DNA from: Candidatus Izemoplasmatales bacterium
GTDB taxonomy: Bacteria > Bacillota_I > Bacilli_A > Izemoplasmatales > Hujiaoplasmataceae
Reading direction: 5' to 3'
Length of the DNA stretch: 37,582 nucleotides
Assembly: GCA_028691315.1 (NCBI GenBank)
Contig: JAQUZN010000009.1
Span: 1 to 37,582, forward strand
The notes beneath the pieces were generated by a model. That model saw nothing but the letters and a program-made list of their open reading frames with translations, was not told where the DNA came from and searched no databases. Shown here one piece after another: positions 12,938-35,280 of the stretch; positions within the stretch are counted from its first letter, which is position 1; the number at the start of each line of letters is the position of its first letter. The position numbers and the translations under genes were made by a program.

Positions 12938-15631
12938 TTAATTGATTTTAGGTTGCATTTTACTTTTAATAATTCCGTAATCCTTATTAATATTTTTGAG
13001 TCTAAATGAGCTTATAACACTCTGCTGAGTTTCTGGTGACCAATATATTATTAGAGATTTTCTTGCTCTAGTTATTGCTGTATAGAATATATTATGTGAT
13101 ATACTTTCCTCAATTTCACTAGTAATAATCAACTTCACAGAATCATATTCTAACCCTTGTGCTTTATGAATGGATATCGCATAAGCAATTTGGAAAGGAA
13201 CAACTGAATCTGAAGTAGAATCGTCACTATCAGTATTTGATGCTTTTGAAACACTGAATCCTATTATTGATTTACCTTCAAATGTCTTTATAAGTTTCAA
13301 TCCTGGGTCTAGATTAAATGCATTTATTGCCCTATCTATCTCAATCTCAAAATAAATCTTTTCAATATCCACAGCAATATTTGTGATGTTTCCTTTAAGG
13401 TTGTTATAAATAGTATTTGGAAATCTATCTGATTCGTTAAATACAATTGGATCTCCAACTTTATAAGTCCATATCCCCCATTGAAACACCTTATTTTTAT
13501 TCTTTATCTGTAGAAGTCTATTGATATTATTGATGCCATATAATCCATCATAATTAAGACATAATATTATTTCATCTGTTGCCTTATAATCAAATATTGA
13601 TTCATCATGGTTCTTACTATATGAGTTTTTGGATATATGCTCAGAAATCGAATCATCATTGTTTCTAACAAGTTCCCATAGTTTCAATAGATTGTCATCT
13701 GTCGTTCTGAAAGGCTTATATAACTCATAACAACAGTTGGGAATAAACTTTTTTAGCAATCCAAACCAATTGCCAAATGATATAGATTCGATTTGGAATA
13801 TATCACCAACAACAATCAATAACTGAAACTTGTTCATCATTAATATATTTAGCATATCTGAGTTGCTAACAGTACTTGATTCATCAATGATTAAGATGTC
13901 CGTAACTACTCCGTTTCTATAATTCTTTGCTACTGTGCTAAAACTACAATTTAATGCATTGACTTTTTTTCTTAGATTATCGACCGCAGTATTAGTGTTT
14001 GCTAAAAATAACTTTTTACTATCCTTAAAAAGATTAGCAATGTGATTAATTAAAGTGGTTTTACCAGTTCCTGCTGAACCATAAATTGCTGCTACTTTAG
14101 AGTCTGCAAAGATCTGTTTAATGATCACTTCTTTTTGAGGGTCATCAATGTTATTATAATCATCAATCCAAGATTCAACAGAATTACTATATTGATCTAT
14201 CCCGGAATCTGAAAGCGATATAATTTTGTTTAAGATGCCAATAGTGTTGTTTTCATACTCTGAAATATAAACTTGCTTCTTATCAATAATTAGTTGACGG
14301 CCTATATGTTTATAGTATATCGTATTATTATACTTTTTAACTAATTCTGGAATGTTTTCAAAATCAATTAGTTCATCCAAGGATGTGTATAAAATAGTTT
14401 CTTTTTCAGTGTTGCTTTTTATCTTTCTTGCTAATAATTCATGCATCCTTTTTTCTAGTGTTATGCATTCAAACAAATCGACTAACTTCGGATTGTGATT
14501 TATTAGAGACGTACAATATGGCATTTCGTCAAAGGAAATGCTGCCATACTCAATTAACAGATTAGATAATGATGCGTTCATCGCTCCCAAATATTGTCTC
14601 TTGATAATTTTGTTTTTCATTGTATATAGTAAATATCTCAAGATATTACAACCAGCCTTGTTTTTTGTAATAATCTTTCTGCATTCTGATAGAATCTTAA
14701 ATAGCGTTTCACTCACTCTTTTATTGGTGTGCAAATAATTGTATATATCTGTATATTCTTGATCTGGAACTGTAACGATATCAAAAAGGTTCAATCTGTT
14801 TTCAGTAAGATATTTCATCGTTTCATAGAATTCTTTAGTTTCAGTTTTAAACTCCAAATTCAAATTAAAATATTTAGCGAAATTATTGATTTCACAAGGC
14901 CTAATTGATATCATCCAGTTTGATACTATTTTTATTGGAATACTGAGTCCTAATATTGAAATGCTAGCATCTATGAATTTGGCTTTAATTGCATAATTAT
15001 CAACTATTTTAAATTTTGAAAATACAATTAGCCTATCAAATTTACTTCTGTTATCACTTCCTGGCGATAGAGTAACCTCATAAAAAACTCTTCCGTCAAC
15101 AAAAAAAGGTTTTACTTTTTCCACATAGAATCTGTCTTCAAATCCCGTATAATAATTCGCATTTCTATAAAGCGAAATCTTTGTTGCAATTTTTGAGTAG
15201 TATTCTTGAAATGTTTTGTCCTGATCAATAAGAAAAAGCTCTATGTTTTTTAAAATTGGGATCCCTAAGTTATCACTAACATATTGTTTGATGTCAAGCA
15301 AGTATTCGTAGTATTTCAACATAAGCCTTTCGGAATTATTAGAATCAAGCGTGTAATGAGATGCCGAAATATTAAGTAATGAATGAAACTTATAGAGTAG
15401 TTTGAATTTGCTTTTGCCATAGCAGTATTTAATTGCTTTTTCAATATTCGGATATGTGTAATCAACTTCAATACCATTTTCAGACTCATAAAGAATAAAA
15501 AAGATAGCTTCTATGAGATTTCGTAACTGTGCTAATACGTTAACTGAAATTTTACCTCGTTCTATACCTGAAGCCAGACTATCTTCAATAGCTTTGTTTG
15601 AATTGTCGAGAAACACTCTACTCTTAGACAT
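12938..15631 (-). CDS. SF1 helicase with large unknown N-terminal region
   Basis: 897 aa. Residues 505-890 are a superfamily 1 (UvrD/RecD-like) motor: Walker A GSAGTGKT (518-525), motif II DES (583-585), motif III VVGDIFQIES, and the C-terminal YAISIHKAQGLEYDSVKLI with YTAITRARKSL. The first about 500 residues have no motif I can name. They are helix-rich at the start (AQLRNLIEAIFFIL, somewhat like HEPN/DUF4145-type bundles, a weak guess), then mixed. TAAGGAGCATAAA precedes the ATG. It stands alone between a recombinase remnant and the small-peptide pair. In this island it is most likely an anti-phage or DNA-processing helicase. No nuclease motif was found. Confidence 0.85.
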   Translation of the reverse strand: MSKSRVFLDNSNKAIEDSLASGIERGKISVNVLAQLRNLIEAIFFILYESENGIEVDYTYPNIEKAIKYCYGKSKFKLLYKFHSLLNISASHYTLDSNNSERLMLKYYEYLLDIKQYVSDNLGIPILKNIELFLIDQDKTFQEYYSKIATKISLYRNANYYTGFEDRFYVEKVKPFFVDGRVFYEVTLSPGSDNRSKFDRLIVFSKFKIVDNYAIKAKFIDASISILGLSIPIKIVSNWMISIRPCEINNFAKYFNLNLEFKTETKEFYETMKYLTENRLNLFDIVTVPDQEYTDIYNYLHTNKRVSETLFKILSECRKIITKNKAGCNILRYLLYTMKNKIIKRQYLGAMNASLSNLLIEYGSISFDEMPYCTSLINHNPKLVDLFECITLEKRMHELLARKIKSNTEKETILYTSLDELIDFENIPELVKKYNNTIYYKHIGRQLIIDKKQVYISEYENNTIGILNKIISLSDSGIDQYSNSVESWIDDYNNIDDPQKEVIIKQIFADSKVAAIYGSAGTGKTTLINHIANLFKDSKKLFLANTNTAVDNLRKKVNALNCSFSTVAKNYRNGVVTDILIIDESSTVSNSDMLNILMMNKFQLLIVVGDIFQIESISFGNWFGLLKKFIPNCCYELYKPFRTTDDNLLKLWELVRNNDDSISEHISKNSYSKNHDESIFDYKATDEIILCLNYDGLYGINNINRLLQIKNKNKVFQWGIWTYKVGDPIVFNESDRFPNTIYNNLKGNITNIAVDIEKIYFEIEIDRAINAFNLDPGLKLIKTFEGKSIIGFSVSKASNTDSDDSTSDSVVPFQIAYAISIHKAQGLEYDSVKLIITSEIEESISHNIFYTAITRARKSLIIYWSPETQQSVISSFRLKNINKDYGIIKSKMQPKIN

Positions 15632-15777: not shown

Positions 15778-17409
15778 GGCTCTTATTCATTTAAGTTGAA
15801 TATTCTATTTGAAGTACTTTTTGTCGAAGCAGTTCGAAAGAGCTGCGCCCATACATAATTCCCTTAATCGTTTTGATTTTGTTAATCTTTCCCTCAGCGA
15901 TTCCATTACTTTCTGGTTCGGTTATTCCATGTAGTACTGCTTCATAATCCCGATACACTGTGTCTCGAAACGTCGTTATTTTTGAATAGGAAGTGATTCT
16001 AGGATTCAATAACCATTGTTCTAGCTTTTGCTTGTTTTTGGAACCGATGACAATTCGAAAAGTAGTAACTAGATTAATTATTTCTCTGATTTTTGGATGT
16101 TCTTTCAAGAATTGAATGATATCTCGTTGTTCTGAAAAAGACAGCCCGATATCAGCGATACCTTTATTATATAGTAACTTTTCTATCTGTCTTCTTTGAA
16201 CTTTTCTTGTGATTTTCAATTGAGTTTGATGATGAAACCTTAAAATAAAGTGTCTTAGTGATGAATAGGTTCCTTGAAAATTGAATTTCGATTGTAATAT
16301 TCGAAACAGTTCTGTTCGTTTCATACCCCTACGAATATGAGACAAAATAAAGTCTTGATATTGAGTTAACGCATGATATGTTTCTCTTTTCATTGAAGGA
16401 TACCATGCGTTACTAACATATTGTTTTACAGTACGATAATCAAGATGATACTCAGCAGCGACTTTTCGATAATTTCTACACTTGCTATAGCGTTTTTGAA
16501 TATTTTTTATCAGTTCAACCTTTTCAAGATAAGCCTCAGAAGCTTGATTATCTTTATAGTTTTTCCGTGTTTTATTGGTAAAGATTGGCAATTTGACATG
16601 TTGTTCATCAACTTTTACCATTACAGGCATTACTTCACGCAGTTCTTCCTGTGCTTTATCTGTCAAGTTCTTAAGTATATGGAAACAATCCGAAATCTGA
16701 TTGGCTTGAAGAAGTGCAAGAGATATCGCTCTAGCATAAATAGATGATCCATCTCGAGAAATACGTTGAATAGAAGAAAAACTCCTCAACCATTCAACGA
16801 CTTTTTCTTCTTGTCTTGAATCTAAAATATCGATCACTTTTCGAGATTTAGAATCGATTAAAACAGTTCCATAGGTGTGTCTTTTCTTCTTTGCAAAATC
16901 ATCTATCGATACACTTTTACAATTTCGATTAATGCTTAATATTTTTTTTAGCGATTCTAAGAATCGTTGTATCGGATACATCGGCTATTTGCTTGCGAAT
17001 TAAGCGTTCTAAACCAATTGTGCTCATCTCTTTATTTAGATGGAGTATATAAGCGTCTAATCGTTTTGTTCTTCTTCCCGTTTCATTGATGAAGTCATAA
17101 GACTCCGCTATCGTCTTCTTTGATATGGTTTGATTGTCATTAAAGTACTTTTTCGTTAATAAATGAAGTTCAACTTTATACACTCCATAAGGGATATCTT
17201 TGACCACACGCATTTTTCGTGAGTGAACTGGTTTCCCTTCAATAGGAGATTGTTCGCAAAAGATTCGTAATAGGTTTCCTTCGATTTCATGCTTAATATA
17301 GTGTAAGTTTGGACTTAATAACCTCAAATATTCATTCATAGAAAACCTCCATTTTTGGCTATATTATATCACAAAATAGAGGTTAAATCAACCTGAATGA
17401 ATAAGAGCC
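15778..17409 (-). mobile_element. ISL3-family insertion sequence, 1632 bp
   Basis: The ends are inverted repeats: 15778-15799 and 17388-17409 share GGCTCTTATTCATT and match at 20 of 22 positions. The single gene inside is an ISL3 transposase. ISL3 elements normally leave 8-bp target duplications, but the flanks (ATGGAATT on the left, ACAAACTT on the right) do not match. Together with the truncated integrase on one side only, this points to a deletion or recombination after insertion. Confidence 0.9.
15791..17339 (-). pseudogene. ISL3 transposase, frameshifted in an A8 run
   Basis: Two overlapping frames together make a transposase of about 515 residues, the family length. The first part (from 17339) is the N-terminal DNA-binding region; the second (to 15791) carries the DDE core: SIDDFAKKK with YGTVLIDS, then RDGSSIYARAI, QISDCFHILKNL, and near the end ESNGIAEGKINKIKTIKG with YGRSSF. 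The break falls at eight A residues (minus strand, about 16949-16942): GCT-AAA-AAA-AAT reads to a stop at 16929, while removing one A restores the full frame. This is an inactivating indel, transcriptional slippage, or a sequencing error in a homopolymer. Both parts are otherwise intact, so the lesion is recent. Confidence 0.88.
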
Positions 17410-19555: not shown

Positions 19556-22500
19556 TCATTTACTTGATTTATACCTTGCTGATGGAGAAGCAAACTTAGT
19601 AAGAGGATATGCTTGCTTAAATTTCTTTCTTAGCCTTCGCTCGTTCTCTCTTATATTATCCTTTATCGATGATATATAGGAATTAGTATTACTATCCTGT
19701 GCTTTTCTTAATGACTCAACATTGACTTTTCCAATATGAATAGAATCTTTTTCCCCTCCAGAAATGGTAGAGATTATTTTGTCTCTTCCATGTAACGGAC
19801 CAATAATCTTCGTATCCCCAAATTCAGATGAATTAGCTTGGGCTAGAAAACAATACAATTCTCGAGAAATCGAATCACCAATACTAGAAAAATAGTTTAT
19901 ATCTTTGTTGTACTGAGTTGTAAATATAAGGTCTATATTTCCACTCATATAAGCCCTTGACCTGATGTCTGTAAGTTCATAACAGTTGAATACAGAAAAG
20001 ACTAGGCCCTTCCAATTAAAGATATAATTCAATGATTTGGGTGAATCCTCACATTTTAATTTGTTTGACTCAATTAAAGATCTTTCTTCTGGAGAATAAT
20101 CATTCTTCTCCCTAATATATATCGAGGTGCTCTTATATGTGATTAAATTCCTTCTCGGTATGACTGTTGCAACACTGTTAATAACCTTCCCCTCTTGAAC
20201 ATCATACTTTATTCCACAAATGATACTTATTCCAGAATAACGCGAAAAACGAGCGATTTCAGGTATCCAGGCCAACGGAACAGAGACTTCAGGAAAAAGC
20301 AAAAAATGAACTGGTTCTAATTGGTCATGATTCTCCTCAAATATAGATAAATCTTTATGATATCGATTTGGACCCGCTAATGTTAATGAAGGTTTTTGTT
20401 TCTCCAAGTAACATTCATTGAGAAGCCTATATAAATCCTTTTTGCCTTTTCTAGATGTTTGAGAAAAATTTATTTCTCCTTTAGATCGAATCATTTGGTG
20501 CTTACCTAGGTTCACATTTGCTAATGCAATATATATTTCATGAAGACGAAAATCGTCATCGGAAGACCCAACACTTATATTAATGCGAGCATAGTCATCA
20601 TTATCCAATGTTATCTTCGAATCTTCAATATCAAGATAATCTAGATTACCTCCTATTATTTTATAAATGTTTATATACTCGTTATGTAGATTCTTAACAC
20701 TGCTAATTTGATTCAATTCTGCGTAATTCTTACAGTAATAGTAAAATGAATATTCATCCTGATGGATAAACTTGGGCGAATACTCAATCCTACGCATGTC
20801 GAGTGGAATTGATTTAGCCAATTGCATATATTTTAATATTTGAATACTAAAAAGATTCTCTATATTCGTCTCTTGAAAGAAATTAAGCATTGGAAATGCT
20901 AAGAATCTATGTTCAAACAAATTAGCTTTGTAAATTTTTATAGAAAGGTCAAATATTTGTTTTTTTATCCGAGATTCATTTTTTAGGGTTCTTCTAACAG
21001 TCAATCCTTGAGCAAGTGAGAAATCAAGAAACTGTTTCATTGTGCTCCTAATATTTTTTTGAATATCCGATTGACGTCGAACAATATAATCTTCTTGATT
21101 CAGTTCCAGAAGCAAAGATTTGATGCTTTTTTCTGCTTTTTTGTATATTTCATCCGCTAAGTCTGTGTTTCCTGTAACAATGATACAAAACTGAAAAATC
21201 TTTTCCCACCTTGCATATAGTTGGAGCAATCTCGGAACGGTCAAAATTAGCTTAATCTGTTCAATAGCCTCGTTTTCCTTAGGCTTTCTTTGATTTGGTC
21301 TACTCTTTTGACAATATTTAAAGTCTGTATTTTTTATTCCTTGTAAAAAATCATTGATAAATTTAACTAAAGCTTGCTGATTAATATCTATATACCCTGC
21401 ATCCCTGACCTTAATCGAATCATTAGGCTTTCTCATAATATACTTCAAAAAATCTTCTGGATTCAGTGATATATCTGGCATAAGATTAGGATCACTTGCC
21501 GTTGCTACTTGAGATTCTAGTTGATCAATATAGGCTCTACTACTTTTGGATGAGAACTTGAATATTTTCATTTTTTCTTTTTGAGTAGTGATGCTTGGAA
21601 AATCAGTTAATGAAATTTCTCCGTTATCATAAGAAAAATCAACAGGATAATATGATAACAATGCTTCATCGTTCATCTTTAGAATACTCGACGAATCTGC
21701 TTTACAAACGATTAATATATCATCGACATAGCGAGAATAATATTCTGTCTTGTTGCTTTTAATTATCGACAAATCAAATTTTTGAATGTGCATATTTGAA
21801 AACATGCCAGAACTTATTAGCCCAATTGGTAGAATGATTTGATGACTAATTTTTCGATACCTAGATATAATCTTTGTATATTTGCGAAATACATTATTCA
21901 TAAATTTTTGAATGCTACTAAATTCATTATAATCACTGCGAAACGCTTCATTTATAGACAGTAAATTATCGACAATTTCATTAACATTCAAATCAATTGA
22001 ATAGAAAAACCCAGTAAAATCAATCGAAAATAAAACAGAATCTTGTTCAGTGTTGTAGAATTCTCTCACCTTATTTACTGCTTGACTTTTCCATTCAGAA
22101 TAGCCTTTGAAAAAGGGGCGATATAGGTGAAGAGAGTTAAAGTCAATTGACTCAAGGAGTGAATTTGCATTCATTTTATATAATTGCTTATCGAATATGT
22201 ACGCTTTGCAGTGATTATTCGACTCGTTCTGAGAGTAAAATCTTCCTAAAAGCAAAGTCCAAAAAGTGTCCAAAATGAAAATTTCGATATCAGAGTCAAA
22301 GAAAAAATTTACTTTCTTGATTTTGTCAAGTTGATCATCTTTATCCGATTCGATAATCTGGTTTTTGTTATCAACGGTGTTCCTATCAACTGTAGACATT
22401 TTAGGTACGACAATAAAATTAATTGTGTTCAATAAAGAACGAAAGTAATTTACGTCGTTTTCGATTATAGCTTTTGCTAAAGAGGATATCCGCTTCTCGA

Positions 22501-22633
22501 TGGATGGATTTCCGTTTTCGAAATCAACTATTTTTCTCTTTAGGTGTATTGCCCCATTATTATAATAAACATTGCTTTTAAATTTTCTATATGAGTTCTT
22601 TAGCATCAAATATAATTCATCGGAAAATTTCAT
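19556..22633 (-). CDS. Defense reverse transcriptase fused to a nitrilase domain (DRT1/UG1 type)
   Basis: 1025 aa. The N-terminal half is a reverse transcriptase: motif A FSIDFTGFFYSID (about 202-214), LPIGLISSGMFSN (268-280), and the catalytic YVDD (302-305) followed by ILIVCK. From about residue 690 a carbon-nitrogen hydrolase (nitrilase) domain follows, with a likely E-K-C triad: E782 in LLFPEVSVPL, K834 in LITYKSTS and C884 in VFNCYEL. RT-nitrilase fusions form the UG1 group (defense-associated RT type 1), shown to protect bacteria from phages. AGAGGTG lies 7 nt before the ATG. All catalytic residues look intact. The upstream 700 bp holds no recognisable non-coding RNA, and one is not established for this type as far as I know. 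Confidence 0.93.
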   Translation of the reverse strand: MKFSDELYLMLKNSYRKFKSNVYYNNGAIHLKRKIVDFENGNPSIEKRISSLAKAIIENDVNYFRSLLNTINFIVVPKMSTVDRNTVDNKNQIIESDKDDQLDKIKKVNFFFDSDIEIFILDTFWTLLLGRFYSQNESNNHCKAYIFDKQLYKMNANSLLESIDFNSLHLYRPFFKGYSEWKSQAVNKVREFYNTEQDSVLFSIDFTGFFYSIDLNVNEIVDNLLSINEAFRSDYNEFSSIQKFMNNVFRKYTKIISRYRKISHQIILPIGLISSGMFSNMHIQKFDLSIIKSNKTEYYSRYVDDILIVCKADSSSILKMNDEALLSYYPVDFSYDNGEISLTDFPSITTQKEKMKIFKFSSKSSRAYIDQLESQVATASDPNLMPDISLNPEDFLKYIMRKPNDSIKVRDAGYIDINQQALVKFINDFLQGIKNTDFKYCQKSRPNQRKPKENEAIEQIKLILTVPRLLQLYARWEKIFQFCIIVTGNTDLADEIYKKAEKSIKSLLLELNQEDYIVRRQSDIQKNIRSTMKQFLDFSLAQGLTVRRTLKNESRIKKQIFDLSIKIYKANLFEHRFLAFPMLNFFQETNIENLFSIQILKYMQLAKSIPLDMRRIEYSPKFIHQDEYSFYYYCKNYAELNQISSVKNLHNEYINIYKIIGGNLDYLDIEDSKITLDNDDYARINISVGSSDDDFRLHEIYIALANVNLGKHQMIRSKGEINFSQTSRKGKKDLYRLLNECYLEKQKPSLTLAGPNRYHKDLSIFEENHDQLEPVHFLLFPEVSVPLAWIPEIARFSRYSGISIICGIKYDVQEGKVINSVATVIPRRNLITYKSTSIYIREKNDYSPEERSLIESNKLKCEDSPKSLNYIFNWKGLVFSVFNCYELTDIRSRAYMSGNIDLIFTTQYNKDINYFSSIGDSISRELYCFLAQANSSEFGDTKIIGPLHGRDKIISTISGGEKDSIHIGKVNVESLRKAQDSNTNSYISSIKDNIRENERRLRKKFKQAYPLTKFASPSARYKSSK

Positions 22634-23347: not shown

Positions 23348-24088
23348 TCAAATGTTTGATAAATAATTTTTGTGATCAATAAGTAACTGAGCAAAATTCA
23401 TAAATAAGATAGAATCAATTTGGCTTTCATGTAATATGTTTGATATATTGTCAGAAATCTGTTTATAATAGTCATTATGTACTATTTTGTTTGCAAATGG
23501 AGCATCACTTTCAATTAGTATTCTATTTGTAGGAATATTCAATAGCAATTCCTTTCCTTCAGCTGATTTTAGCATTCTTTGATTAAAAGAAATGTAAAAT
23601 CCAGAATTGATTATTAAATTAAGTTCCTTTAAATTTCCAGTAAACCAGTGAAAAATAACAAACTTAGCGTTATATTTTTTTAATATGTGAATACACTCCT
23701 TCACAGAACATCTTGAATGAATTATTAAAATTTTATCTTTTGCCATTGAGATGATTTTATCAAATATATCAATTTGAATTTGCTTTGTTATAATATGCTC
23801 CTTAGAGAAATCCAGTCCTACTTCCGATACATATTTAGTCTCAGTTAGATACTTTTTGAATAAGATTTCATCGAACTGAAAATTACAAATACTATTAGGA
23901 TGATATCCCAATGCAATACGAACCTTTTGATAACTTCCGTATTGTTTTTTATTGTATAAGTAATCATCGATATCATATGTAGCCGCTATAAAAAATATTT
24001 CTTCTTTTATCAATAGTTGATTTAGAAAATTTTGATTTTGTATCTCACTTAAGTGAATGTGGACGTCATATACATAATTCTTACTCAT
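23348..24088 (-). CDS. qatD: TatD-family metal-dependent hydrolase (QatD position)
   Basis: 246 aa. The TIM-barrel TatD motifs are all present: DVHIHLS (HxH at 10-12), SEVGLDF (metal-bridging E), LIIHSR, VIFHWFTG and IESDAPF (last aspartate). TatD enzymes are metal-dependent nucleases or hydrolases. It is the last gene of a tight four-gene operon and overlaps the QueC-like gene by 8 bp. QueC-like plus TatD-like neighbours are the hallmark of the QatABCD anti-phage system, where the TatD protein is QatD. The gene name is used by analogy. The operon differs in its first gene. Confidence 0.9.
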   Translation of the reverse strand: MSKNYVYDVHIHLSEIQNQNFLNQLLIKEEIFFIAATYDIDDYLYNKKQYGSYQKVRIALGYHPNSICNFQFDEILFKKYLTETKYVSEVGLDFSKEHIITKQIQIDIFDKIISMAKDKILIIHSRCSVKECIHILKKYNAKFVIFHWFTGNLKELNLIINSGFYISFNQRMLKSAEGKELLLNIPTNRILIESDAPFANKIVHNDYYKQISDNISNILHESQIDSILFMNFAQLLIDHKNYLSNI

Positions 24089-25310
24089 AATATTTTTCTA
24101 GTTCTAAGGAAAATTGGTTCAACATTTCCTTTAGGCAATGAAGATATTCTGTAGAAGAATAATATTTTTCTTCAATTCCTTCTAAATAAATAAAAATTCT
24201 CCCGCTTTTTATTTCTTTGTTAAACCGCATATAATATTCCTTTAATGACTTTTCTTGATGAAGCATATACCTCTTTGATGAAGCATTAGCTATTTGAATA
24301 TCATCAAAATAATAATTTGCATCGTAATCATCCAAATCAAAGTACTTTATGCCGATTTTCCTTAAAGTACAAGCAATACAAACTCCACAATTTCTTTTAT
24401 CTTCTTTAAGCCCTGCAAAATGAGTTATTCCAGCTGATTTGGAACATGTTCTGGTCTGTTTAATTATAATTCTATATTCTGCGGGTATTTCATTAATTAC
24501 TTGCCCTTTTGTATAAAACTGATATGGATTAACAGCTTTTATATCAACATCTACAGAGTGTAAAATTTCATTAAACATATATAGTGTTTTTGGATGAGTT
24601 GTTTTTGTTACTCCTCTTCTTTCGTCAAAGGAAGGATTTTGAGACATTATACCATTTTCATAGATTTTAATTTCCTTAACGCCATAATAATCAGCATAGA
24701 GCAGAGCGCAAGCTAGAAACAATAATGATCTTGTTCTTTGAGTATACCTATTTACTGGGATCTCGGAATCTTTATGAATTTCAACGTGTTTTATAACCTT
24801 GTTATTTGAAATTTCAGATAAGTAACTAAAATTATTCCCGGTCTTAGTGCCCTCTGCTCTATTTCGATATGTAACAAAGAGTGTTTTATTATTTCTACCA
24901 ATCTCCTTACAAGCTCCGGATAAAGAATCTAATCCTGCAGATAATAAGGATATTGAATTAAATATATATGTATTCGTATCTGGATTATTACTTACAATTT
25001 TCTTTTCTTTTTCAGATTTAACAAATTTTATTTTCCATTTTTCTTCACCAACAGCAAAATGGATCAGTTCCTCAAATTTATACTCTTTTCCTAAAAATGT
25101 GTTTATGTTCTCAACAGAAATTTCAATTTCAACAACAAGTCCGGAATGTTCATCTTTTGTTTCGTTTAAGTCAGCATAAAAAACATATGCAAAAATATCA
25201 AATAAATCTAAAATGATAGAATTATTATATTCTTTAATGTTCAACATATTATTTGAATTAAAATGAGTTTCATAAGGTAGTGTCTTCCTTAATCCAAAAT
25301 ATGAATTCAT
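24081..25310 (-). CDS. qatC: QueC-like PP-loop protein (QatC position)
   Basis: 409 aa. ISLLSAGLDSLSGACKEIG is the PP-loop (S-x-G-x-DS) of the QueC/ExsB family, which adenylates substrates. KEDKRNCGVCIACTLRKIG with an upstream CSKSAG gives the four-cysteine zinc site. It is much longer than housekeeping QueC (about 230 aa): roughly 130 extra N-terminal residues and a C-terminal extension, as in QatC. The start is 1 bp past the QatB-position stop, with GGAGATAT upstream. QatC is thought to make or attach a 7-deazaguanine-type group. No queuosine-pathway genes (queD, queE, queF) are near, which supports a defense role. Confidence 0.9.
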   Translation of the reverse strand: MNSYFGLRKTLPYETHFNSNNMLNIKEYNNSIILDLFDIFAYVFYADLNETKDEHSGLVVEIEISVENINTFLGKEYKFEELIHFAVGEEKWKIKFVKSEKEKKIVSNNPDTNTYIFNSISLLSAGLDSLSGACKEIGRNNKTLFVTYRNRAEGTKTGNNFSYLSEISNNKVIKHVEIHKDSEIPVNRYTQRTRSLLFLACALLYADYYGVKEIKIYENGIMSQNPSFDERRGVTKTTHPKTLYMFNEILHSVDVDIKAVNPYQFYTKGQVINEIPAEYRIIIKQTRTCSKSAGITHFAGLKEDKRNCGVCIACTLRKIGIKYFDLDDYDANYYFDDIQIANASSKRYMLHQEKSLKEYYMRFNKEIKSGRIFIYLEGIEEKYYSSTEYLHCLKEMLNQFSLELEKYYE

Positions 25311-25311
25311 A

Positions 25312-25977
25312 CTAAAATATCTCCTTCAAGACTTTCATATATTGATCTAATATTTTGTCTATTTCTTTTCTTAAATTTTCAATATAAGCTTCTTCATTTT
25401 GGCATTCAATATTGAAGTCAATATTACTTAAATCCAATTTCTCTTCAATTATATCATCAAAGCTATGCTTGATTTGCTCGCCTACAGATTCCTCATCTAA
25501 ATCATCTTCAATGACATCTGACAAATCTTCAAGTGTGTTTCGCTTAAATATTGTGTTCAATATTTTTGTTATAAAAGTTTTGATAAATAAAAATATGTCG
25601 ATACTTTTTTGTTTTCTTTCATAGAAATCGTAAAAGACACTTCTAAAGATTACTCTATCTGACTCTGTTTCTAAATTTACTTGTTCACTGATTAAATTTA
25701 TAAATTCCTCTTTTTGAAGATTCTTCTCTTGCTCAGAATAGATCCCACTGTTATATTTTCTTAATGCGCTTATTATATAAACCATAGAAATTCTTAGTCC
25801 TGGGCTCCCAAGTTTCGTATACATTTGTTTATAAATCTTATTATTTAGCTTATATTTCATCAATTCCTTGACTAAACCGCCTAATCCAATTCCAGATTTG
25901 CCAATTATGCCAGTTTTATAATTATCTTTAATAATGCTGTTTGCTCTGCTATTTCGATTTCTTTTTGATGAACCCAT
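25312..25977 (-). CDS. QatB-position protein
   Basis: 221 aa, unknown fold. It opens MGSSKRNRNSRANSIIKD with a glycine-rich stretch GIIGKSGIGLGGLVKEL, then a helical region (LRISMVYIISALRKYN) and a very acidic C-terminal part (VIEDDLDEESVGEQ). A flexible M-G-[ST]-rich N-terminus with glycines is what I recall for QatB proteins, but that likeness is weak and the call rests mainly on order: second gene, directly before the QueC-like gene. GAGGAGAT lies 6 nt before the ATG, and the start shares one base with the previous stop (TAATG). Recent work suggests that QatB is the substrate QatC modifies at its N-terminus; I cannot test this here. Confidence 0.6.
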   Translation of the reverse strand: MGSSKRNRNSRANSIIKDNYKTGIIGKSGIGLGGLVKELMKYKLNNKIYKQMYTKLGSPGLRISMVYIISALRKYNSGIYSEQEKNLQKEEFINLISEQVNLETESDRVIFRSVFYDFYERKQKSIDIFLFIKTFITKILNTIFKRNTLEDLSDVIEDDLDEESVGEQIKHSFDDIIEEKLDLSNIDFNIECQNEEAYIENLRKEIDKILDQYMKVLKEIF

Positions 25978-26654
25978 TATATTATCTCCTCTATTTTAGA
26001 AATTAACCACTCATATTTATTCTTAATTCTTTCATTTGAAATTAAATCTTTGTTTATTAAAATTAATTTATACATAGACATAAAATCTGTTATTGCTACA
26101 GAATTAATTTTACAAAAGTTTAAATAATTCATATAATAATAACCATCTTCATCAAGTTTAAATAAACTTGTAATGATTTTTTGAGTTAAACTTGATTTTT
26201 CAATCATATAGTCAAGGTTTTTTTTATCAATTATAATTCTTGGATATATAGCCTTTGTGGTTTCCAATACATAAGAGTCAACTAATGCTTCACCAAAAAG
26301 TATCTTCTCGCTATGATAGAAGTCACCAATACATATTGCGCCTCTAGAAAGAATCCCTCTTTCTAGCAAAAATCCTTGAAAGGCACAAGCTGAATTTAAT
26401 AATATTATTAGTTGAGCTTGATTATCAAAATCATCAGAATTTATTGAACAGCAAACACTATCTGACAGTATTGTTACTCTTATACTATTGCGGTTTCCTA
26501 ATTCCATGCCTTTGCCAATCGCAATATTCATTTTTAATATTGCTTCCATTGCTTTGATTACATTATTATGCTGTGTTTTATCCTTGCTCTTAATCATATT
26601 TTTAAATCCTAAAATGTCAACAAATAAAACCAGTCTTTCCTCATAATCAAACAT
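25977..26654 (-). CDS. Class III nucleotide-cyclase-like protein heading the Qat-like operon
   Basis: 225 aa from ATG 26652-26654 (GGAGG 6 nt upstream; a longer frame start has no site). The layout follows the cyclase homology domain: β1 RLVLFVDILGFKNM with metal-binding D13; VTILSDSVCCSI with the second aspartate D65; then LSRGAICIGDFY and FGEALVDSYVLETTKA, matching the R-G-x-x-x-G...G-x-x-V-x-x-A-x-x-L-E order of adenylate/guanylate cyclases. The usual base-selecting lysine and VN-x-A-x-R residues are replaced, so the substrate could be unusual or the site could be a sensor. In qatABCD this first position holds the ATPase QatA, which is absent here. No membrane segment is seen. Confidence 0.75.
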   Translation of the reverse strand: MFDYEERLVLFVDILGFKNMIKSKDKTQHNNVIKAMEAILKMNIAIGKGMELGNRNSIRVTILSDSVCCSINSDDFDNQAQLIILLNSACAFQGFLLERGILSRGAICIGDFYHSEKILFGEALVDSYVLETTKAIYPRIIIDKKNLDYMIEKSSLTQKIITSLFKLDEDGYYYMNYLNFCKINSVAITDFMSMYKLILINKDLISNERIKNKYEWLISKIEEII

Positions 26655-26719: not shown

Positions 26720-26728
26720 ATTATACCA
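26720..26728 (-). promoter_or_regulatory. Extended -10 promoter of the Qat-like operon
   Basis: TGGTATAAT on the minus strand, about 65 bp before the cyclase start. The TG-n-TATAAT form works without a good -35, and none is seen at 17 bp. Confidence 0.6.
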
Positions 26729-26874
26729 CTAATAATGAATATTTAAATACTATCGTGTTACTCTATTGGTTTTTAGCTAATATTTGAAGTTGTTTTCATT
26801 TTTATGGTGATGATCAACTCTTCAAAAGAGATTATCTCCTACTATTTTTGAATAACAGAAAAAGCATTATAAAA

Positions 26875-26919
26875 AAGACGTAAATTAACACCAATTTAAT
26901 GTGTTTCTATTAACGTCTT
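26875..26919. terminator. Hairpin between the IS256 relic and the Qat-like operon
   Basis: AAGACGT (26875-26881) and ACGTCTT (26913-26919) pair, and inner ACAC/GTGT also pair. A-rich sequence on one side and T-rich on the other make it a possible bidirectional terminator. It could also be an old IS end. Confidence 0.45.
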
Positions 26920-26989
26920 ATCTTATTATTATTTAGAACTTAGTTCCTTCGAAACATCTTATAATATTCCGTTATTAGAAAAATTAAGA

Positions 26990-27590
26990 TTAAAAAGATG
27001 TATTGATTATTTTCTACGAGTCCGATTACTTTCGGATAGACTTAACTCCAATTGCTTTTAAACAAATCTAGTTGAACGATAGCCGTTTTTTTGTTTTCGG
27101 CTCTGTAGATCTTTTTGAAAACTCTCAACGCTGACGATGACTTGTTCGGTAATGTTTGAGATCGTTGTCGTATTGTATTTTTTTGAGTACAGAGATTCAA
27201 CGATAATTGTTATTTCTTCATTCGTTAAGCCAGTTTAAAATAGGATGACAATGATTTCTCGGTTCTCGTATCTCTTCATTTGTACTTAGGAACAATTGGC
27301 GATTCAAACTCTGAGTTCCTGTCTCTTGGAATCATTAAACTCAGTTCACCATGGGTAGTGTTTAATTTGCGCTCATATATTCCGTTCCTAGAATTGACTA
27401 AATTGAATCCATTTCGATCATATTTTTAATATTTTAAAAATGAAGTCATTTCCAAATTCAATAGATCATTAAGTGCTTTTTCAAGTTCAACTCGAAACAG
27501 GTCTAGAATTGATTCATTTAAATTTTGATTTGATAGAATACAATTCATTTGTTTTGTGGTAAAAATCATTCATTGGAAATCTTCCTGTGT
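26990..27590 (-). pseudogene. IS256-family transposase relic (N-terminal half)
   Basis: The minus strand reads, across several stops, LFRVELEKALNDLLNLEM, TSFLKY, YDRNGFNLVNSRNGIYERKL, TTHGELSLMIPRDRNSEFES, then TGLTNEEITIIVESLYSKKYN and TTISNITEQVIVSVESFQKD. This is the N-terminal half of an IS256/mutator transposase (RNG-x-Y-x-R, PRDR-x-x-x-F, TGL/MS-x-x-EI, ISNITE). The catalytic DDE half is missing. At least four stops show long decay. Ends are approximate. Confidence 0.8.
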
Positions 27591-30132: not shown

Positions 30133-32913
30133 TTATTTCTTTAGGAAGAAATCAAATTGCAAATATTCCGGAAGTGGATGATCAAGTTTAATGTCAAATA
30201 ATAAAGTCTTTTTTGAATTGCTTGATTCTCTAGGGTTTTCTAATTTTCCGGTTCCTATATAAGTGAATGGTAAGGTGATTCCATCTTCTTCGCTTGTTTT
30301 CCTTATAAAGAGGTGACTTACTTTTGAACCAATAAGTCCTCGATGATTTTGAAGAGTTGTTGAAGTTTCAGATTCCCACTTAAATATACTTGGGCTTTCA
30401 AACTCATCTTCATATTTCAAATGTTCTATTCTTACCTTATCTTTTTTAAGATTAGCCAATATATATACTGTTCCATCTTTTTCTATCTTTGTTCCTTTAT
30501 AGTATTTGTAAGTTTTTTCACAAAGGGCCATCATAAATTGTTCTGTTGTATAATTCCCGTATAACTTAAAATTACCATTAAACTCGCCAAATTCTACTGC
30601 ATATCTAGTCAACCCATATTCAATTAAATCAAGAATATGCTCTCTAAACTCAACGTTACTTAGTTCTAAGTTTAGAGTATACATATTATCTTCAAGTAAT
30701 ACATATTGGGTGTTGTTCGTTTTTTCTGCAGTAGACAAAAATTCATTTTGGAGATTTAATAACGCATTCTCAAATAGTTCTTTTTTAAAGAAGTCATGTT
30801 TTATACTTATGTGTTCTATTAGGTCTTCTTTATTAAGCTGTTGATATATCATTAACTCAGAAATGATTTCAAATTCATCAGGTCTAACTAGAGGTAATAG
30901 ATTTGATAGATATTCAATAAATCCTTTTTGTTCCGTATCAAATGCTGGAACTGATTCGCCTATTTTTTCTAGGAAATTGTAATAGGACTTATTTTTACCA
31001 GACATAATTACTTTAATAAAACGCATTAGTTCGGGAGCATAATCATAATTAAGAAAATCCATGTGTGTAGGTGGTATTGACTTGCCTACATATGATTTAA
31101 AGTTTTCATAATCCTTTTTAAGAAAAGCTCTCATATTAAAGTTCGTCGATTCAAGATACTTATTGATATCTTCTTTACTTAATTCATCAATATTAATAAC
31201 AACTCCAGGAATATCAATAGATTTAAAGTTATCTCTAACAAGATCCATTAGTAACTGTTTTTCAATGATTGTACTTTCAGATAAAGATCCAAGCGCTTTA
31301 ATGATTTGAACACTTCTTTTATATGAATTACCTATAAAGTCTAGTACTGTAAGAAAAGACTTGTTTGTAAACTTTCTTAATCCTCTACCTAGTTGTTGTA
31401 AAAAGATAACAGAAGACTCCGTAGGACGAAGAAATAAAACCATATTGATTCCTGGAACATCTACACCTTCGTTAAGAATGTCCACCGTAAAGATGATTTG
31501 AAGTGCATGTGCTTCATCATGCAAATCATGAAAGGCTTTGATTCTTTCCCCTGTATTGCTTTGTCCGGTTAAATACATAGTTGCATATCCTAATAGACTC
31601 ATATTATCAGCCATTAATCTTGCATGTTCAACGCTTCTGCAATATCCAATTGCTTTTAATTTATCTTGAGGAAGATGCTTCTTTATCTCTTCTGATATAA
31701 ATTCACAGTTTTCTTGTTTAGATATCTCTTGAATTAATAAACGGATATCGTCATGTCCATAATTGACTAGTTTGTCTCTGATTCCAAAGTAATGGAATGG
31801 AACAACTAAGTCATTAATAATCGCATCTCTAAGCCTTAAATCAAAAGGAACGTTTTTATCAAAAATATCATAGATATCCTTATTATCCATTCGATCTGGA
31901 GTCGCAGTTAATCCCAAAAGAAATTCGGGTTTAAAATAAGTAATGATTTTTTGATAGGTATCCGCTGCAGCATGATGAACTTCATCTAAGACGATATAAT
32001 CAAATTCATGCGGATCAAATATTTCTAAATTATTTGACATTGTTAAATTCATCGAAAATATGAAAGATGAATCTATTTCTTTTGCGTTTCCCGAGAAAAG
32101 CCCTAGAGAAATATTAGATCCAAATACAGATCTAAAAATCTTTATTGCCTCAATTAATATTGTTTCTCGGTGAACAATGAATAGCAGTCTTTTTGCGCCA
32201 TAGTTTCTTGCATCAAACGCTGCTAAGTGTGTTTTCCCTGAACCAGTAGCCGCTATAACTAAAGCTTTATTAACCCCTTGATCTCTGTATCTTCTTAATT
32301 CTTTTAATGCTTTTCTTTGCATGTAATTTGGATTAACCGAAATGAAATTTGTATAATAATCCATATCCCACTTTTCAATAGAGTACTCGAGTTGGATAAC
32401 ATACTGCTTAATTAAGTCTTTTGAGAGTAGATTTGTTTGAGTCCATAATGATTCAAAGTCTGAAAATGCAGATTTATATGATTCACTCTTTTCTTTTGAA
32501 GATAGTAATATGTTCCATTCAATATTCTTAATCAAAGCAAATCTCGTGATGTTTGATGAACCTATTACAACTTCATATAAATCCGGAAAATCAAATAAGT
32601 ATCCTTTTGTATGAAACCCTTTATCTCCAAACGAATTGAAATCTATATGACAGGAAAAGTTTTTATATTTCTCTTGCCAGGAAAGAAATTGATTTAAAGA
32701 AGCAATATCAGTAAAGTTTTGATAAGTAGAGGTAATTATTTTTCCTTGTGCACCTCTTTCAAGTGCATCTGTAATTGCCTTTACTAATAGTACAATTCCA
32801 GCCTTTTTTATAAAACTAACAGAGAAATAGAAAGAAGAGCATTTTTCAATCGAATGAATAATATGCTCTAAAAATGTTTCTTTTGAGTGGTTAGCTAAGA
32901 ATTTGTTTTCCAT
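30133..32913 (-). CDS. PLD-nuclease / SF2 helicase / DUF3427 fusion
   Basis: 926 aa from ATG 32911-32913 (AGAGGAG 6 nt upstream; the longer frame has no site). Residues 1-135 are a phospholipase D-type nuclease with one HKD motif: HTKGYLF (101) and GSSN (118-121). A superfamily 2 helicase follows: Walker A AATGSGKT (221-228), DEVHH (310-314), LTATPDR, and motif VI FLQQLGRGLRKF. The C-terminal about 350 residues match the DUF3427 layout (IGSKVSHLFIRK, FTYIGTGKLENP). With one HKD, the nuclease would act as a dimer. Such proteins resemble restriction or defense nucleases. Paired with the Nudix gene. All motifs are intact. Confidence 0.9.
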   Translation of the reverse strand: MENKFLANHSKETFLEHIIHSIEKCSSFYFSVSFIKKAGIVLLVKAITDALERGAQGKIITSTYQNFTDIASLNQFLSWQEKYKNFSCHIDFNSFGDKGFHTKGYLFDFPDLYEVVIGSSNITRFALIKNIEWNILLSSKEKSESYKSAFSDFESLWTQTNLLSKDLIKQYVIQLEYSIEKWDMDYYTNFISVNPNYMQRKALKELRRYRDQGVNKALVIAATGSGKTHLAAFDARNYGAKRLLFIVHRETILIEAIKIFRSVFGSNISLGLFSGNAKEIDSSFIFSMNLTMSNNLEIFDPHEFDYIVLDEVHHAAADTYQKIITYFKPEFLLGLTATPDRMDNKDIYDIFDKNVPFDLRLRDAIINDLVVPFHYFGIRDKLVNYGHDDIRLLIQEISKQENCEFISEEIKKHLPQDKLKAIGYCRSVEHARLMADNMSLLGYATMYLTGQSNTGERIKAFHDLHDEAHALQIIFTVDILNEGVDVPGINMVLFLRPTESSVIFLQQLGRGLRKFTNKSFLTVLDFIGNSYKRSVQIIKALGSLSESTIIEKQLLMDLVRDNFKSIDIPGVVINIDELSKEDINKYLESTNFNMRAFLKKDYENFKSYVGKSIPPTHMDFLNYDYAPELMRFIKVIMSGKNKSYYNFLEKIGESVPAFDTEQKGFIEYLSNLLPLVRPDEFEIISELMIYQQLNKEDLIEHISIKHDFFKKELFENALLNLQNEFLSTAEKTNNTQYVLLEDNMYTLNLELSNVEFREHILDLIEYGLTRYAVEFGEFNGNFKLYGNYTTEQFMMALCEKTYKYYKGTKIEKDGTVYILANLKKDKVRIEHLKYEDEFESPSIFKWESETSTTLQNHRGLIGSKVSHLFIRKTSEEDGITLPFTYIGTGKLENPRESSNSKKTLLFDIKLDHPLPEYLQFDFFLKK

Positions 32914-33025
32914 AGATACTCCTCTTTGCAACAAGAAAGTGTTCATCAATTTCTTCTACATATTCAAAAAAATACGGCACCTTTTAGTTTTATAATTGCT
33001 GTAATTTCTGAGTTGTATTTTCGCT

Positions 33026-33621: not shown

Positions 33622-34437
33622 TTAAACTTTTGCTAAAACCAATTTTTCATTTAACTCTTCATAAGATTCATATAGATCATTATTAAATTTTAAATATCTT
33701 GTTATAACAGGCTCTATCAAGTCTGGTGTAGCTTTGGGTAAATTACTAATATATTTCAACAAGAATTCCAACGAATTCTCATAATTAAACACTCCTATGT
33801 GTCTATCTATTTCTTTACCGCTACTATAACAAAAATCATACTGATTAAAAATGGCATATTTACCGTTTATAATTATACAGTCAAATTGATCATTTCTTTG
33901 AATATTATTAGTAATATAGTACTCTACGATTTTTTCAACCAAATCTATAATATCCTTATATGTGCTTGCGGCATATAAAATCACAGGAATAGTCTTTAGA
34001 GTATTTAATCTTCCCTCGCTTGGTTTCGAATACATTCTGAAGTCATAAACTCTTTTTATTTGTTTCAATTTCTTTATTTGATCTAATGATCTAGTAAGTT
34101 CATCATTCATTAAAACACCCTTCACATCAATGACAAAATCCACACCATCGGCTAATATGACTGAATGGCGTTCCGATTCTTTTGATATTGTGTTGGGGTG
34201 TATTGAATTCAGCATCACAATATCAAATGAGGGTGATTCACTTCCATAACTATCAATAATATTACCTTTGGCAATTCGATTAGGGAATGGAAAATATTTT
34301 ACTAATATTGATCTAACAAATCCTTCTCTTCTATCTGCTATTTCTTGTGGTGTCCCTCTACCTTCAATTGAAGCTTTGGAAAAAGCATTTTGAATTTCTT
34401 CAGTTTCTATTCTTAGTAATTCGTTAAGTTTTGTCAT
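33622..34437 (-). CDS. DUF6602 protein, possible PD-(D/E)XK nuclease
   Basis: 271 aa. RIAKGNIIDSYGSESPSFDIVMLN followed by DGVDFVIDVKGVL fits the DUF6602 family. The spacing of FDIV and IDVKG also resembles the active site of PD-(D/E)XK nucleases (D, then D-x-K), which is inference. AAGGAGC precedes the ATG. It is the last of four genes in the caspase operon, 20 bp after the second TIR-like gene, so it is a candidate extra effector or a regulator. A TAA ends the gene just before the 24-bp repeats; read through it, the frame would continue about 24 codons into them. Confidence 0.75.
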   Translation of the reverse strand: MTKLNELLRIETEEIQNAFSKASIEGRGTPQEIADRREGFVRSILVKYFPFPNRIAKGNIIDSYGSESPSFDIVMLNSIHPNTISKESERHSVILADGVDFVIDVKGVLMNDELTRSLDQIKKLKQIKRVYDFRMYSKPSEGRLNTLKTIPVILYAASTYKDIIDLVEKIVEYYITNNIQRNDQFDCIIINGKYAIFNQYDFCYSSGKEIDRHIGVFNYENSLEFLLKYISNLPKATPDLIEPVITRYLKFNNDLYESYEELNEKLVLAKV

Positions 34438-34457: not shown

Positions 34458-34850
34458 TCAGTTTCTAGCTTTGTTAATCAACAATTTTAATTTGGTCCAA
34501 GACCAAGGATAGATAACATCAGTTTTCTTAGCATTAAGCGGTTTTTCTACCTTACCATCTTTTTTTCCGCAGAGCAAAAAATACTGCACTAGTTCTTCTT
34601 GAGTAATCGTTAATTCAGCAGAAACACCTACAGCACTAGAGGTATGTCTACCACATAATACAATAACTAAATCACACGACTTGATTCTTGCTCTTGCTGT
34701 AGCTTTCCATTTTTCATCTATTGCTTCCTTAATTGACATGTCAACTATTTCAAATGGTGAATCCTTAAGTTTTGATTGTGCGACCAGCGAACCCTTAATA
34801 TCCTTGTCATTATCATAATCAAAACAAATATATACTCTCTTCTTTTGCAT
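34458..34850 (-). CDS. TIR-like domain protein (second TIR of the operon)
   Basis: 130 aa, a single domain. KRVYICFDYDNDKDIKGSLVAQ is the first strand and loop; ARIKSCDLVIVLCGRHTSSAVGV and AELTITQEELVQYFLL give the later strand and the helix with candidate catalytic glutamates. YPWSWTKLKLLI ends the domain. This layout matches short TIR-like proteins (DUF1863/MTH538-type and relatives) found with Thoeris systems. It differs strongly from the neighbouring TIR, so it is not a recent duplicate. It may be a second signal maker, a sensor, or an inactive regulator. It starts 10 bp after the first TIR gene's end. Confidence 0.75.
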   Translation of the reverse strand: MQKKRVYICFDYDNDKDIKGSLVAQSKLKDSPFEIVDMSIKEAIDEKWKATARARIKSCDLVIVLCGRHTSSAVGVSAELTITQEELVQYFLLCGKKDGKVEKPLNAKKTDVIYPWSWTKLKLLINKARN

Positions 34851-34860
34851 AATTGGTCAC

Positions 34861-35280
34861 CTATATGGAAATTTCTATGATAGCATCAACAATAGACGAG
34901 GTGCTCCATGATACAATTTTGGTAGCTTTTTCTTTAACAATTTTTGATGTTTTTTCTGATCCCCATGGTTCAATAGCAAGAATGGGTTTTTCTAATTCTA
35001 GTGCAACTTCAATTTCTAGATTAATTGAGTCACTATATGACGAATATACTCCGGCCATTATTAAGACAACACTTGCATACTTCATTTGATCCCTAATTTT
35101 GGATTTCAAAGCTATTCTGTATCTTGTTTCTGTTTTTGCAAGAATAATAAATGGATTATCTTTTGGTATAGAGTAGTTCTTATACTTAAAATAATTAGCT
35201 TTATCTAACAATAAACAAAGTTTCTCATATGCATCAGAGTAATTCCATGAGTGGCTGATAAATAGATTATATTCTGCCAT
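34861..35280 (-). CDS. thsB: TIR domain protein, ThsB-like
   Basis: 139 aa, one TIR domain. NLFISHSWNYSD is the β1/A-loop (FISHS-W is typical of ThsB), VVLIMAGVYSSYSDSINLEIEVALELEKPILAIEPWG includes the glutamate after the αC region expected to be catalytic (NLEIEVA) and the KPI-x-x-x-PWG end. ThsB-type TIRs split NAD+ into cyclic ADP-ribose signals on phage infection. It shares one base with the stop of the caspase gene (TAATG), so they are translated together. A TIR plus caspase pair matches type IV Thoeris. The gene name is by analogy. Confidence 0.85.
   Translation of the reverse strand: MAEYNLFISHSWNYSDAYEKLCLLLDKANYFKYKNYSIPKDNPFIILAKTETRYRIALKSKIRDQMKYASVVLIMAGVYSSYSDSINLEIEVALELEKPILAIEPWGSEKTSKIVKEKATKIVSWSTSSIVDAIIEISI

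What the first reader, a model, noticed from the sequence alone, without database searches (positions are those of the whole stretch)
23348..26654. Qat-like defense operon in which a nucleotide-cyclase-like gene replaces the QatA ATPase
Four genes in one direction overlap or touch (1-bp overlap, 1-bp gap, 8-bp overlap) under one extended -10 promoter. Genes 3 and 4 are clearly QueC-like and TatD-like, as in QatC and QatD. The first gene, where qatABCD has a P-loop ATPase, has no Walker motif; it carries a class III cyclase layout (D13 in VDILGF, D65 in LSDS, RGAICIG, FGEALVDSYVLE). The base-selecting residues are changed. A system that joins a cyclic-nucleotide-type sensor with a deazaguanine-type PP-loop enzyme and a TatD hydrolase is not one I know. 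It could be a new Qat subtype in which a nucleotide signal or nucleotide binding replaces ATPase sensing.
Basis: partly seen in the sequence, partly recalled or inferred. Interest (0 to 1): 0.92.

Follow-up and report, generated by a model that had tools for sequence, protein, structure and literature searches.

The report
QatA-less phage-defence operon with cyclase-fold gene
A bacterial anti-phage operon of the known Qat kind that belongs to a branch lacking the usual ATPase, and that here carries an extra protein shaped like a signalling-nucleotide enzyme, which may regulate the system but was not found beside any other Qat operon we looked at.

Summary
The operon is real and the coordinates exact. 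Gene 1 has the class III cyclase fold: both metal aspartates are kept, the positions aligned with catalytic Asn and Arg are not. "Replacement of QatA" is not supported. Of 20 other QatB+QatC loci, 4 also lack QatA and have no gene 1; with the window they form one clade (100/99; all five rows compositionally biased). Gene 1's family is beside Qat in 0 of 26 other QatC-like loci; Qat is near 0 of 51 other loci of the family. The better finding: a QatA-less Qat branch with a short QatB tail (Trp in 0 of 5, against 14 of 15 QatA-linked), to which this locus added a gene from a roaming, defence-neighbouring family. Likely mechanism: QatC uses ATP to modify QatB's N-terminal glycine; QatBC is the core; QatD and perhaps gene 1 tune it. 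Gene 1's role is inferred only.

The parts
25977..26654 (-). Gene 1: 225-aa protein with class III cyclase fold; D13 and D65 (metal ligands in cyclases) kept, Val at the positions aligned with catalytic Asn (125) and Arg (129)
   Evidence: coordinates, RBS; model and PDB matches; active-site columns; no Pfam, NCBIfam or PADLOC match for this protein at E<=1; phrog_23933 E 4.3e-31
25312..25977 (-). Gene 2: QatB, 221 aa, starts MGSS (N-terminal glycine acceptor motif), short tail without Trp
   Evidence: Alignment with QatBs; profile E 1.1e-52 (the window row is in that profile); AlphaFold model (pLDDT 68.5) best PDB match 9y01_A QatB-QatC complex, E 0.36, probability 0.87; first 45 residues
24081..25310 (-). 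Gene 3: QatC, 409 aa; SAGLDS PP-loop at 124, T235/T237, P262-x4-TK, Cys289/308/311/314 zinc set
   Evidence: PDB QatC entries 9vlk and 9zee matched by the family profile (which includes this protein) E 1.6e-73 and 1.1e-72
23348..24088 (-). Gene 4: QatD, TatD-family metal hydrolase, 246 aa; H10, H12, E89, H124, H147, D195 conserved
   Evidence: Pfam TatD_DNase E 3.1e-35, PADLOC QatD 2.4e-42, NCBIfam QatD 162.5 bits, below its cut-off 230; alignment of 6. That these six are the metal ligands of TatD is recalled
26720..26747 (-). Promoter-like site TTTAAA-16-TATAAT with TG before the -10; position plausible, not above chance

Best explanation
A Qat anti-phage operon from a QatA-less branch of Qat, with a cyclase-fold accessory gene added at the front. 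Working model: QatB and QatC form a complex; QatC spends ATP to activate a carboxylate (7-carboxy-7-deazaguanine or a relative) and joins it to the N-terminal glycine exposed when QatB's Met is removed; the modified QatBC complex blocks phage growth. QatD (TatD hydrolase) widens or regulates this. The cyclase-fold protein, whose gene overlaps qatB by 1 nt, if it acts on Qat at all (about even odds), most likely binds a nucleoside triphosphate and metal and acts as a regulator or infection sensor; it probably does not make a 3',5'-cyclic nucleotide by the usual chemistry. Shown here: gene identities, folds, motifs, clade, lack of QatA, presence of FolE-QueE-QueD-QueC in the same assembly. Shown elsewhere for P. 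aeruginosa Qat: QatBC complex, need for QatC ATP-site and QatB G2, QatA and QatD dispensable for some phages and needed for others. Inferred: the modification itself, and everything about the cyclase-fold protein's role. The confidence given is for the QatA-less Qat core, not for the role of gene 1.
For: QatC/QatD families; QatB by N-terminus, alignment and fold; QatC keeps ATP loop, two Thr and zinc set, of which PMC13279940 (parts 1-3 of 6 read) found the loop serines and the threonines essential; QatBC alone protected against lambda-vir there; QatA-less clade 100/99 with 4 relatives that lack gene 1; no QatA-model match in the assembly; cyclase fold with Asn/Arg positions changed; FolE-QueE-QueD-QueC run on another contig of the assembly, so the deazaguanine precursor may be available.
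Against: QatC and QatD score below NCBIfam equivalog cut-offs (166 of 280; 162.5 of 230), so this is a distant member. The QatB fold match is weak in E-value and RMSD is 7.2. In the tree all five QatA-less rows are among the 11 of 26 flagged for biased letter make-up, and branches are long, so composition may help group them. QatC activity could not be reconstituted even in the known system. The assembly is 90.1% complete and 7.9% contaminated: contig C8 and the window may not be one organism, and QatA could be in the missing tenth; one partial KAP_NTPase match (positions 6-76 of 293, 23.6 bits) exists on contig C91, not a QatA-model match. The active-site mapping of gene 1 rests on a weak profile alignment (E 5.6e-4, probability 30; with a single cyclase sequence as template only 10 columns aligned).
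Confidence: 0.72

Rival explanations
1. The cyclase-fold protein functionally replaces QatA: it occupies the qatA slot and gates QatBC by nucleotide binding or a nucleotide signal, defining a new Qat subtype.
For: Same slot and same 1-nt overlap with qatB that qatA shows in 5 of the 14 loci measured; no QatA-model match in the locus or assembly; metal aspartates kept; in P. aeruginosa loss of QatA and QatD did restore susceptibility to some phages, so a substitute could have a use (PMC13279940).
Against: Four relatives in the same clade lack both QatA and gene 1; pairing seen once; QatBC alone suffices against lambda-vir, so a replacement is not strictly needed (PMC13279940).
Confidence: 0.2
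2. Gene 1 is an unrelated, self-contained defence or mobile-element gene that merely landed upstream of qatB and shares its transcript.
For: The family often shows no recognisable partner, or lies beside varied ones: ParA-type ATPase (L029, L032, L089, L090), TIR proteins (L026, L053), HaeII (L025), DNA methylase (L030), a HATPase gene (L055); the window is a dense defence island; decayed-looking frames upstream.
Against: 1-nt overlap with qatB suggests translational coupling, which an accidental neighbour need not have.
Confidence: 0.4
3. A Pycsar-like system: gene 1 makes a cyclic nucleotide and QatBCD or a nearby TIR protein responds.
For: Class III cyclase fold; two family members lie near TIR proteins, one of which (L026) matches Pfam CAP12-PCTIR_TIR (E 7.4e-40) and, over its TIR part only, PADLOC PycTIR (E 1e-11); TIR-like genes elsewhere in the window.
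Against: [quoted passage not shown] no PADLOC cyclase match at E<=0.01 in 14 family members (one weak Csx19 match in one member); no cyclic-nucleotide-binding domain was matched in the operon.
Confidence: 0.08

Closest known systems
qatABCD (Qat) anti-phage system, P. aeruginosa and E. coli type
   Same: QatB-QatC-QatD in the same order, direction and tight spacing; QatB N-terminal MG(T/S)S; QatC ATP loop, two threonines, TK and zinc cysteines.
   Different: No QatA; QatB 221 aa instead of 239-291 in the 15 QatA-linked loci examined, tail without the Trp; QatC and QatD under NCBIfam cut-offs; an extra cyclase-fold gene in the qatA slot.
QatA-less Qat loci L013 (Listeria phage record), L014 (viral contig), L004/L005 (Bacilli MAGs), found here
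   Same: Same QatC clade (100/99), no QatA, short QatB (206-221 aa) without tail Trp.
   Different: None has the cyclase-fold gene; L004/L005 also show no QatD in the stretch held and have a divergent gene upstream (DUF4238 by Pfam in L004).
Type IV CBASS Cap9 and its CD-NTase
   Same: QueC-family ligase with a partner whose N-terminus is MGGS (read in PMC13279940; the deazaguanylation preprint PMC11996544 was seen only in a listing).
   Different: No CD-NTase match among the operon proteins, and QatC has Thr-Thr where Cap9 has Tyr-Asp.
Class III nucleotide cyclases (PF00211), including Pycsar PycC
   Same: Fold; two aspartates at the metal positions.
   Different: Catalytic Asn and Arg positions not kept in the family (Asn 1 of 14, Arg 0 of 14); no PF00211 match by sequence.

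Membership tests
Qat (qatABCD) | QatC: QueC-like PP-loop enzyme with Qat-specific motifs | tested here: met
   PADLOC QatC E 8.1e-42; SAGLDS, R-x-R-x3-F, TKTTHP, P-x4-TK, C-x18-C-x2-C-x2-C; NCBIfam cut-off not reached (166 of 280)
Qat (qatABCD) | QatB with N-terminal MGTS-type motif directly before qatC | tested here: met
   MGSS start, MG in all 8 aligned QatBs; best PDB match of the model is QatB 9y01_A, but weak E 0.36
Qat (qatABCD) | QatD: TatD-family hydrolase | tested here: met
   PADLOC QatD 2.4e-42, Pfam TatD 3.1e-35; NCBIfam QatD cut-off not reached (162.5 of 230)
Qat (qatABCD) | QatA: KAP-type P-loop NTPase | tested here: not met
   No QatA match in the window or, by the NCBIfam QatA model at E<=0.001, in the assembly. 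So it is not a qatABCD; it is filed as a QatA-less relative
Qat (qatABCD) | Phage protection dependent on QatC ATP site and QatB Gly2 | not testable with these tools
   Needs cloning and plaque assays
Class III nucleotide cyclase | Cyclase homology domain fold | tested here: met
   All 50 printed of 63 PDB matches with E<=0.001 are class III cyclases, query TM 0.37-0.48
Class III nucleotide cyclase | Two metal-binding aspartates | tested here: met
   D13 and D65 in 14 of 14 family members, aligned with the aspartates of two PF00211 proteins
Class III nucleotide cyclase | Catalytic Asn and Arg of the last motif (recalled as transition-state residues) | tested here: not met
   V125 and V129; Asn in 1 of 14, Arg in 0 of 14; mapping by counting columns of a weak profile alignment
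Pycsar | PycC cyclase plus PycTM or PycTIR receptor | tested here: not met
   No PADLOC Pycsar match to the four operon proteins at E<=1, none to 14 family members at E<=0.01

The most novel reading that the evidence does not exclude
The cyclase-fold protein senses or makes a nucleotide and thereby switches the QatC-catalysed joining of a nucleobase to QatB: a nucleotide-gated protein-nucleobase conjugation, in a Qat branch that dispensed with QatA.
Probability: 0.13. Interest if true: 0.85.

Novelty: new variant of a known kind. Interest (0 to 1): 0.5.

Why it matters
What QatA does, and which reaction QatC performs, are stated open questions (PMC13279940). A natural clade that does without QatA, and whose QatB lacks the tail Trp, offers a direct test: is that tail region tied to QatA, and how is QatBC controlled without QatA? 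The two members tested score under the NCBIfam QatC cut-off (window 166, L014 213, cut-off 280), so routine annotation may miss the branch. The cyclase-fold family, without a fitting Pfam or PADLOC model in the searches made and several times found beside defence genes, is a candidate for a new nucleotide-handling module.

Tried and rejected
Gene 1 as a Qat subtype marker: not supported by the survey. Pycsar membership: rejected. Extended -10 as evidence of a promoter: not above chance. Rfam family (at gathering threshold) or tRNA in the window: none. Sequence match of gene 1's family profile to PDB: none at E<=1. QatB profile against PDB: ten weak hits, none of them QatB; fold search used instead. 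Fold search of gene 1 in viral structures: one match at E<=0.001, a 'response regulator' of Harvfovirus. Searches with little result: QatC, gene 1 and L013 QatC as single queries in viral contigs, none; L014 QatC found only itself; profile A7 found L014 and L020; gene 1 in phages, none; QatC in the one genome-contig scan, 2 loci. QatC in whole genomes: 90 of the order (own only), 392 of the phylum (own only), 395 of the class by profile (own and G507), 43 of G323's family (0), 43 of G507's order (G507 only). Gene 1 in 392 of the phylum: own plus 2 by single sequence, own plus 4 by profile. KAP_NTPase in the own assembly: one partial match. Papers: searches for deazaguanylation, QatABCD (14 papers, 13 listed), Qat with cyclase (1 paper), cyclase/Pycsar/defense island terms, QatA/QatB/QatC terms (21 papers, 20 listed), Pycsar. 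I saw listings, parts 1-3 of 6 of PMC13279940, parts 1-2 of 5 of PMC13329287 plus a term search, and passages of PMC12786226 (a complete QatABCD in an Erysipelotrichales) and PMC11224242. Nothing that I saw describes a QatA-less or cyclase-bearing Qat; other papers in the listings were not opened, and only the licensed PMC library was searched.
Full report
Observation. Genes 3 and 4 match QatC and QatD models with E-values near 1e-42, but remain under the NCBIfam equivalog cut-offs (QatC 166 of 280 bits, QatD 162.5 of 230). A QatA-linked QatC from another genome, L044, scores 494.8 and the QatA-less L014 scores 213.1 against the same QatC model; L004, L005 and L013 were not scored with it. The promoter-like site is plausible in position but not above chance.

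Gene 2 is QatB. It has no family match at E<=0.001 in Pfam, NCBIfam, PADLOC or PHROGs. It starts MGSS, the same kind of N-terminus as QatB in PMC13279940 (MGTS). It aligns with the gene before qatC in other Qat loci (MG invariant in 8 of 8). An AlphaFold model from 6 sequences (pLDDT 68.5) has as its best PDB match chain 9y01_A of the QatB-QatC complex, probability 0.87, E 0.36, TM 0.42. Alone this is weak; with position and N-terminus it is convincing.

Gene 3 as an enzyme. QatC keeps SAGLDS (residues 124-129), R192-x-R-x3-F, E218-N-G220, T235/T237 before HP, P262-x4-TK and cysteines 289, 308, 311, 314. In PMC13279940 (parts 1-3 of 6 read; [quoted passage not shown] PMC13329287 (parts 1-2 of 5 and a term search) reports qatA beside 34.3% of the QatC cluster. 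The same assembly holds a FolE, QueE, QueD, QueC run on contig C8, so the deazaguanine precursor is likely made, unless that contig or the window is contaminant (assembly 90.1% complete, 7.9% contaminated).

Gene 1. The model is good (pLDDT 88.6, pTM 0.86, 14-sequence alignment). Foldseek gave 63 PDB matches at E<=0.001; the 50 printed are all class III adenylyl or guanylyl cyclases, TM 0.37-0.48 by query length. Sequence searches find no Pfam, NCBIfam or PADLOC family for the window protein at E<=1. Of 14 family members scanned in Pfam (E<=1) and PADLOC (E<=0.01) there were only scattered weak matches, one member each, the best being Csx19 at 0.0071 and an MscS domain at 0.026. PHROG 23933, of unknown function, matches (E 4.3e-31). 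D13, G16, F17, S64, D65, R104, G110 and K213 are invariant in 14 of 14 members. In a profile alignment with two PF00211 proteins (E 5.6e-4, probability 30) D13 and D65 fall on the metal aspartates, while, counting columns, V125 and V129 fall on the Asn and Arg of the last motif; against one PF00211 sequence alone only 10 columns around D13 aligned. Across the family position 125 is Asn in 1 of 14 and 129 is Arg in 0 of 14. That Asn and Arg are the transition-state residues of class III cyclases is recalled, not from a call. My reading: an NTP- and metal-binding domain that probably does not perform standard cyclisation.

Is QatA replaced? No QatA lies in the window. In the whole assembly the NCBIfam QatA model has no match at E<=0.001; the broader KAP_NTPase model has one partial match (positions 6-76 of 293, 23.6 bits over a cut-off of 20) on another contig, which I take to be another P-loop protein. 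I examined 26 QatC-like loci other than the window. Six have no QatB match (L015, L016, L018, L020, L063, L067) and were dropped from the QatA count. Of the remaining 20, 15 have QatA, one (L060) has an insertion sequence where QatA would be, and 4 (L004, L005, L013, L014) have none. L004 and L005 are close kin, so these are three lineages besides the window. L004 is a contig of only 4.2 kb, so QatA could lie elsewhere in that genome; for the others too only the fetched stretch was examined. The plasmid loci were picked for variety, so 15 of 20 is not a prevalence. A maximum-likelihood tree of 26 QatCs (window, the 20, and 5 long relatives as outgroup; L063 left out) puts the window and the four QatA-less loci in one clade, 100/99, needing a single change of QatA state with L060 set aside. 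Against this: end branches are long, and 11 of 26 rows are flagged for biased letter make-up, all five QatA-less rows among them, so shared composition may add to the grouping. None of the 26 loci has the cyclase-fold gene.

From the other side, 51 cyclase-fold loci from viral contigs, plasmids and genomes (33 distinct proteins once identical ones are collapsed; several contigs were fetched twice) have no QatA, B, C or D match at E<=1e-4 within the fetched flanks. Among plasmids, 51 records carry the cyclase-fold gene and 102 carry QatC by the window's query; I saw the accessions of 72 of those 102 (30, 42 more) and, comparing by eye, none is shared.

What the cyclase-fold family does elsewhere. 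It directly follows a ParA-type ATPase in four viral contigs (L029, L032, L089, L090; Pfam-confirmed for the first two, by sequence likeness for the others). It lies near TIR proteins in two loci (L026, about 200 nt away, and L053, about 30 nt away), after HaeII endonuclease (L025), before a DNA methylase (L030), and before a HATPase gene in the window's own assembly (L055). Many other copies have no recognisable partner. It looks like a mobile module with varying partners.

A second difference in the QatA-less clade. QatB is 206-221 aa in the 5 QatA-less rows and 239-291 aa in the 15 QatA-linked rows (lengths, summarised; L066 counted from an upstream start). A Trp within the first 45 residues occurs in 14 of 15 QatA-linked QatBs (L068 is the exception) and 0 of 5 QatA-less ones (L066 read there from its internal MGTS start; L060, shortened beside an insertion sequence, also has none and is counted in neither group). 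In P. aeruginosa deletion of the tail stretch 16-22 with Pro16 and Trp18 abolished defence. The difference is one event on the tree, so it is a correlation of sample size one; it suggests, but does not show, that the tail motif and QatA belong together.

Mechanism. Best-supported: QatBC is the core; QatC ATP-dependently modifies QatB Gly2; QatD tunes range; gene 1 overlaps qatB by 1 nt (TAATG) and is either a nucleotide-binding regulator or an independent gene sharing the transcript. The last two cannot be separated by sequence.

Verdict. Observation confirmed; reading partly supported. New variant of a known kind: a QatA-less Qat branch, with a locus-specific cyclase-fold addition.

Noticed in passing
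L016:4144-4938, L018:5053-5859, L020:5078-5854, L067:3538-4320, each followed by a QueC-like gene: A sister group of long QueC-like proteins (566-729 aa) follows a 257-264-aa gene whose protein starts MGH or MGN with TR-x-W close behind in the 4 loci where it could be read (L018 from an internal GTG; L015 is cut by the contig end). It looks like another N-terminal-glycine substrate and QueC-like ligase pair, without QatA, B or D matches.
   Followed up: partly
L029, L032, L089, L090: Recurrent two-gene cassette: ParA-type ATPase directly followed (overlap of up to 4 nt, or abutting) by a cyclase-fold gene.
   Followed up: partly
window 19556-22633 (-): Reverse transcriptase fused to a nitrilase-like domain, PADLOC RT_UG5-nitrilase E 3.9e-153, a DRT-type defence gene just downstream of qatD.
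   Followed up: no
window 34458-36251 (-): Caspase-domain gene overlapping a ThsB-type TIR gene, with a second ThsB-TIR gene after it: a caspase plus TIR cassette.
   Followed up: no
window 12938-15631 and 30133-32949 (-): Further defence candidates: PDC-S53 helicase-like protein (1164.7 bits) and a type IV methyl-directed restriction enzyme with DUF3427.
   Followed up: no
window 33622-34437 (-): NucC-like / PD-DExK nuclease match (E 7.9e-9 and 9.2e-15).
   Followed up: no
window about 26900-27560 (-): Broken reading frames upstream of the operon look like a decayed transposase (recalled likeness to the IS256 group, not searched); an ISL3-type transposase lies at 15791-16981.
   Followed up: no
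G000:C208:3616-4407 (L055): A second cyclase-fold paralogue in the same assembly, followed by a HATPase (HSP90/GyrB-like) gene.
   Followed up: partly
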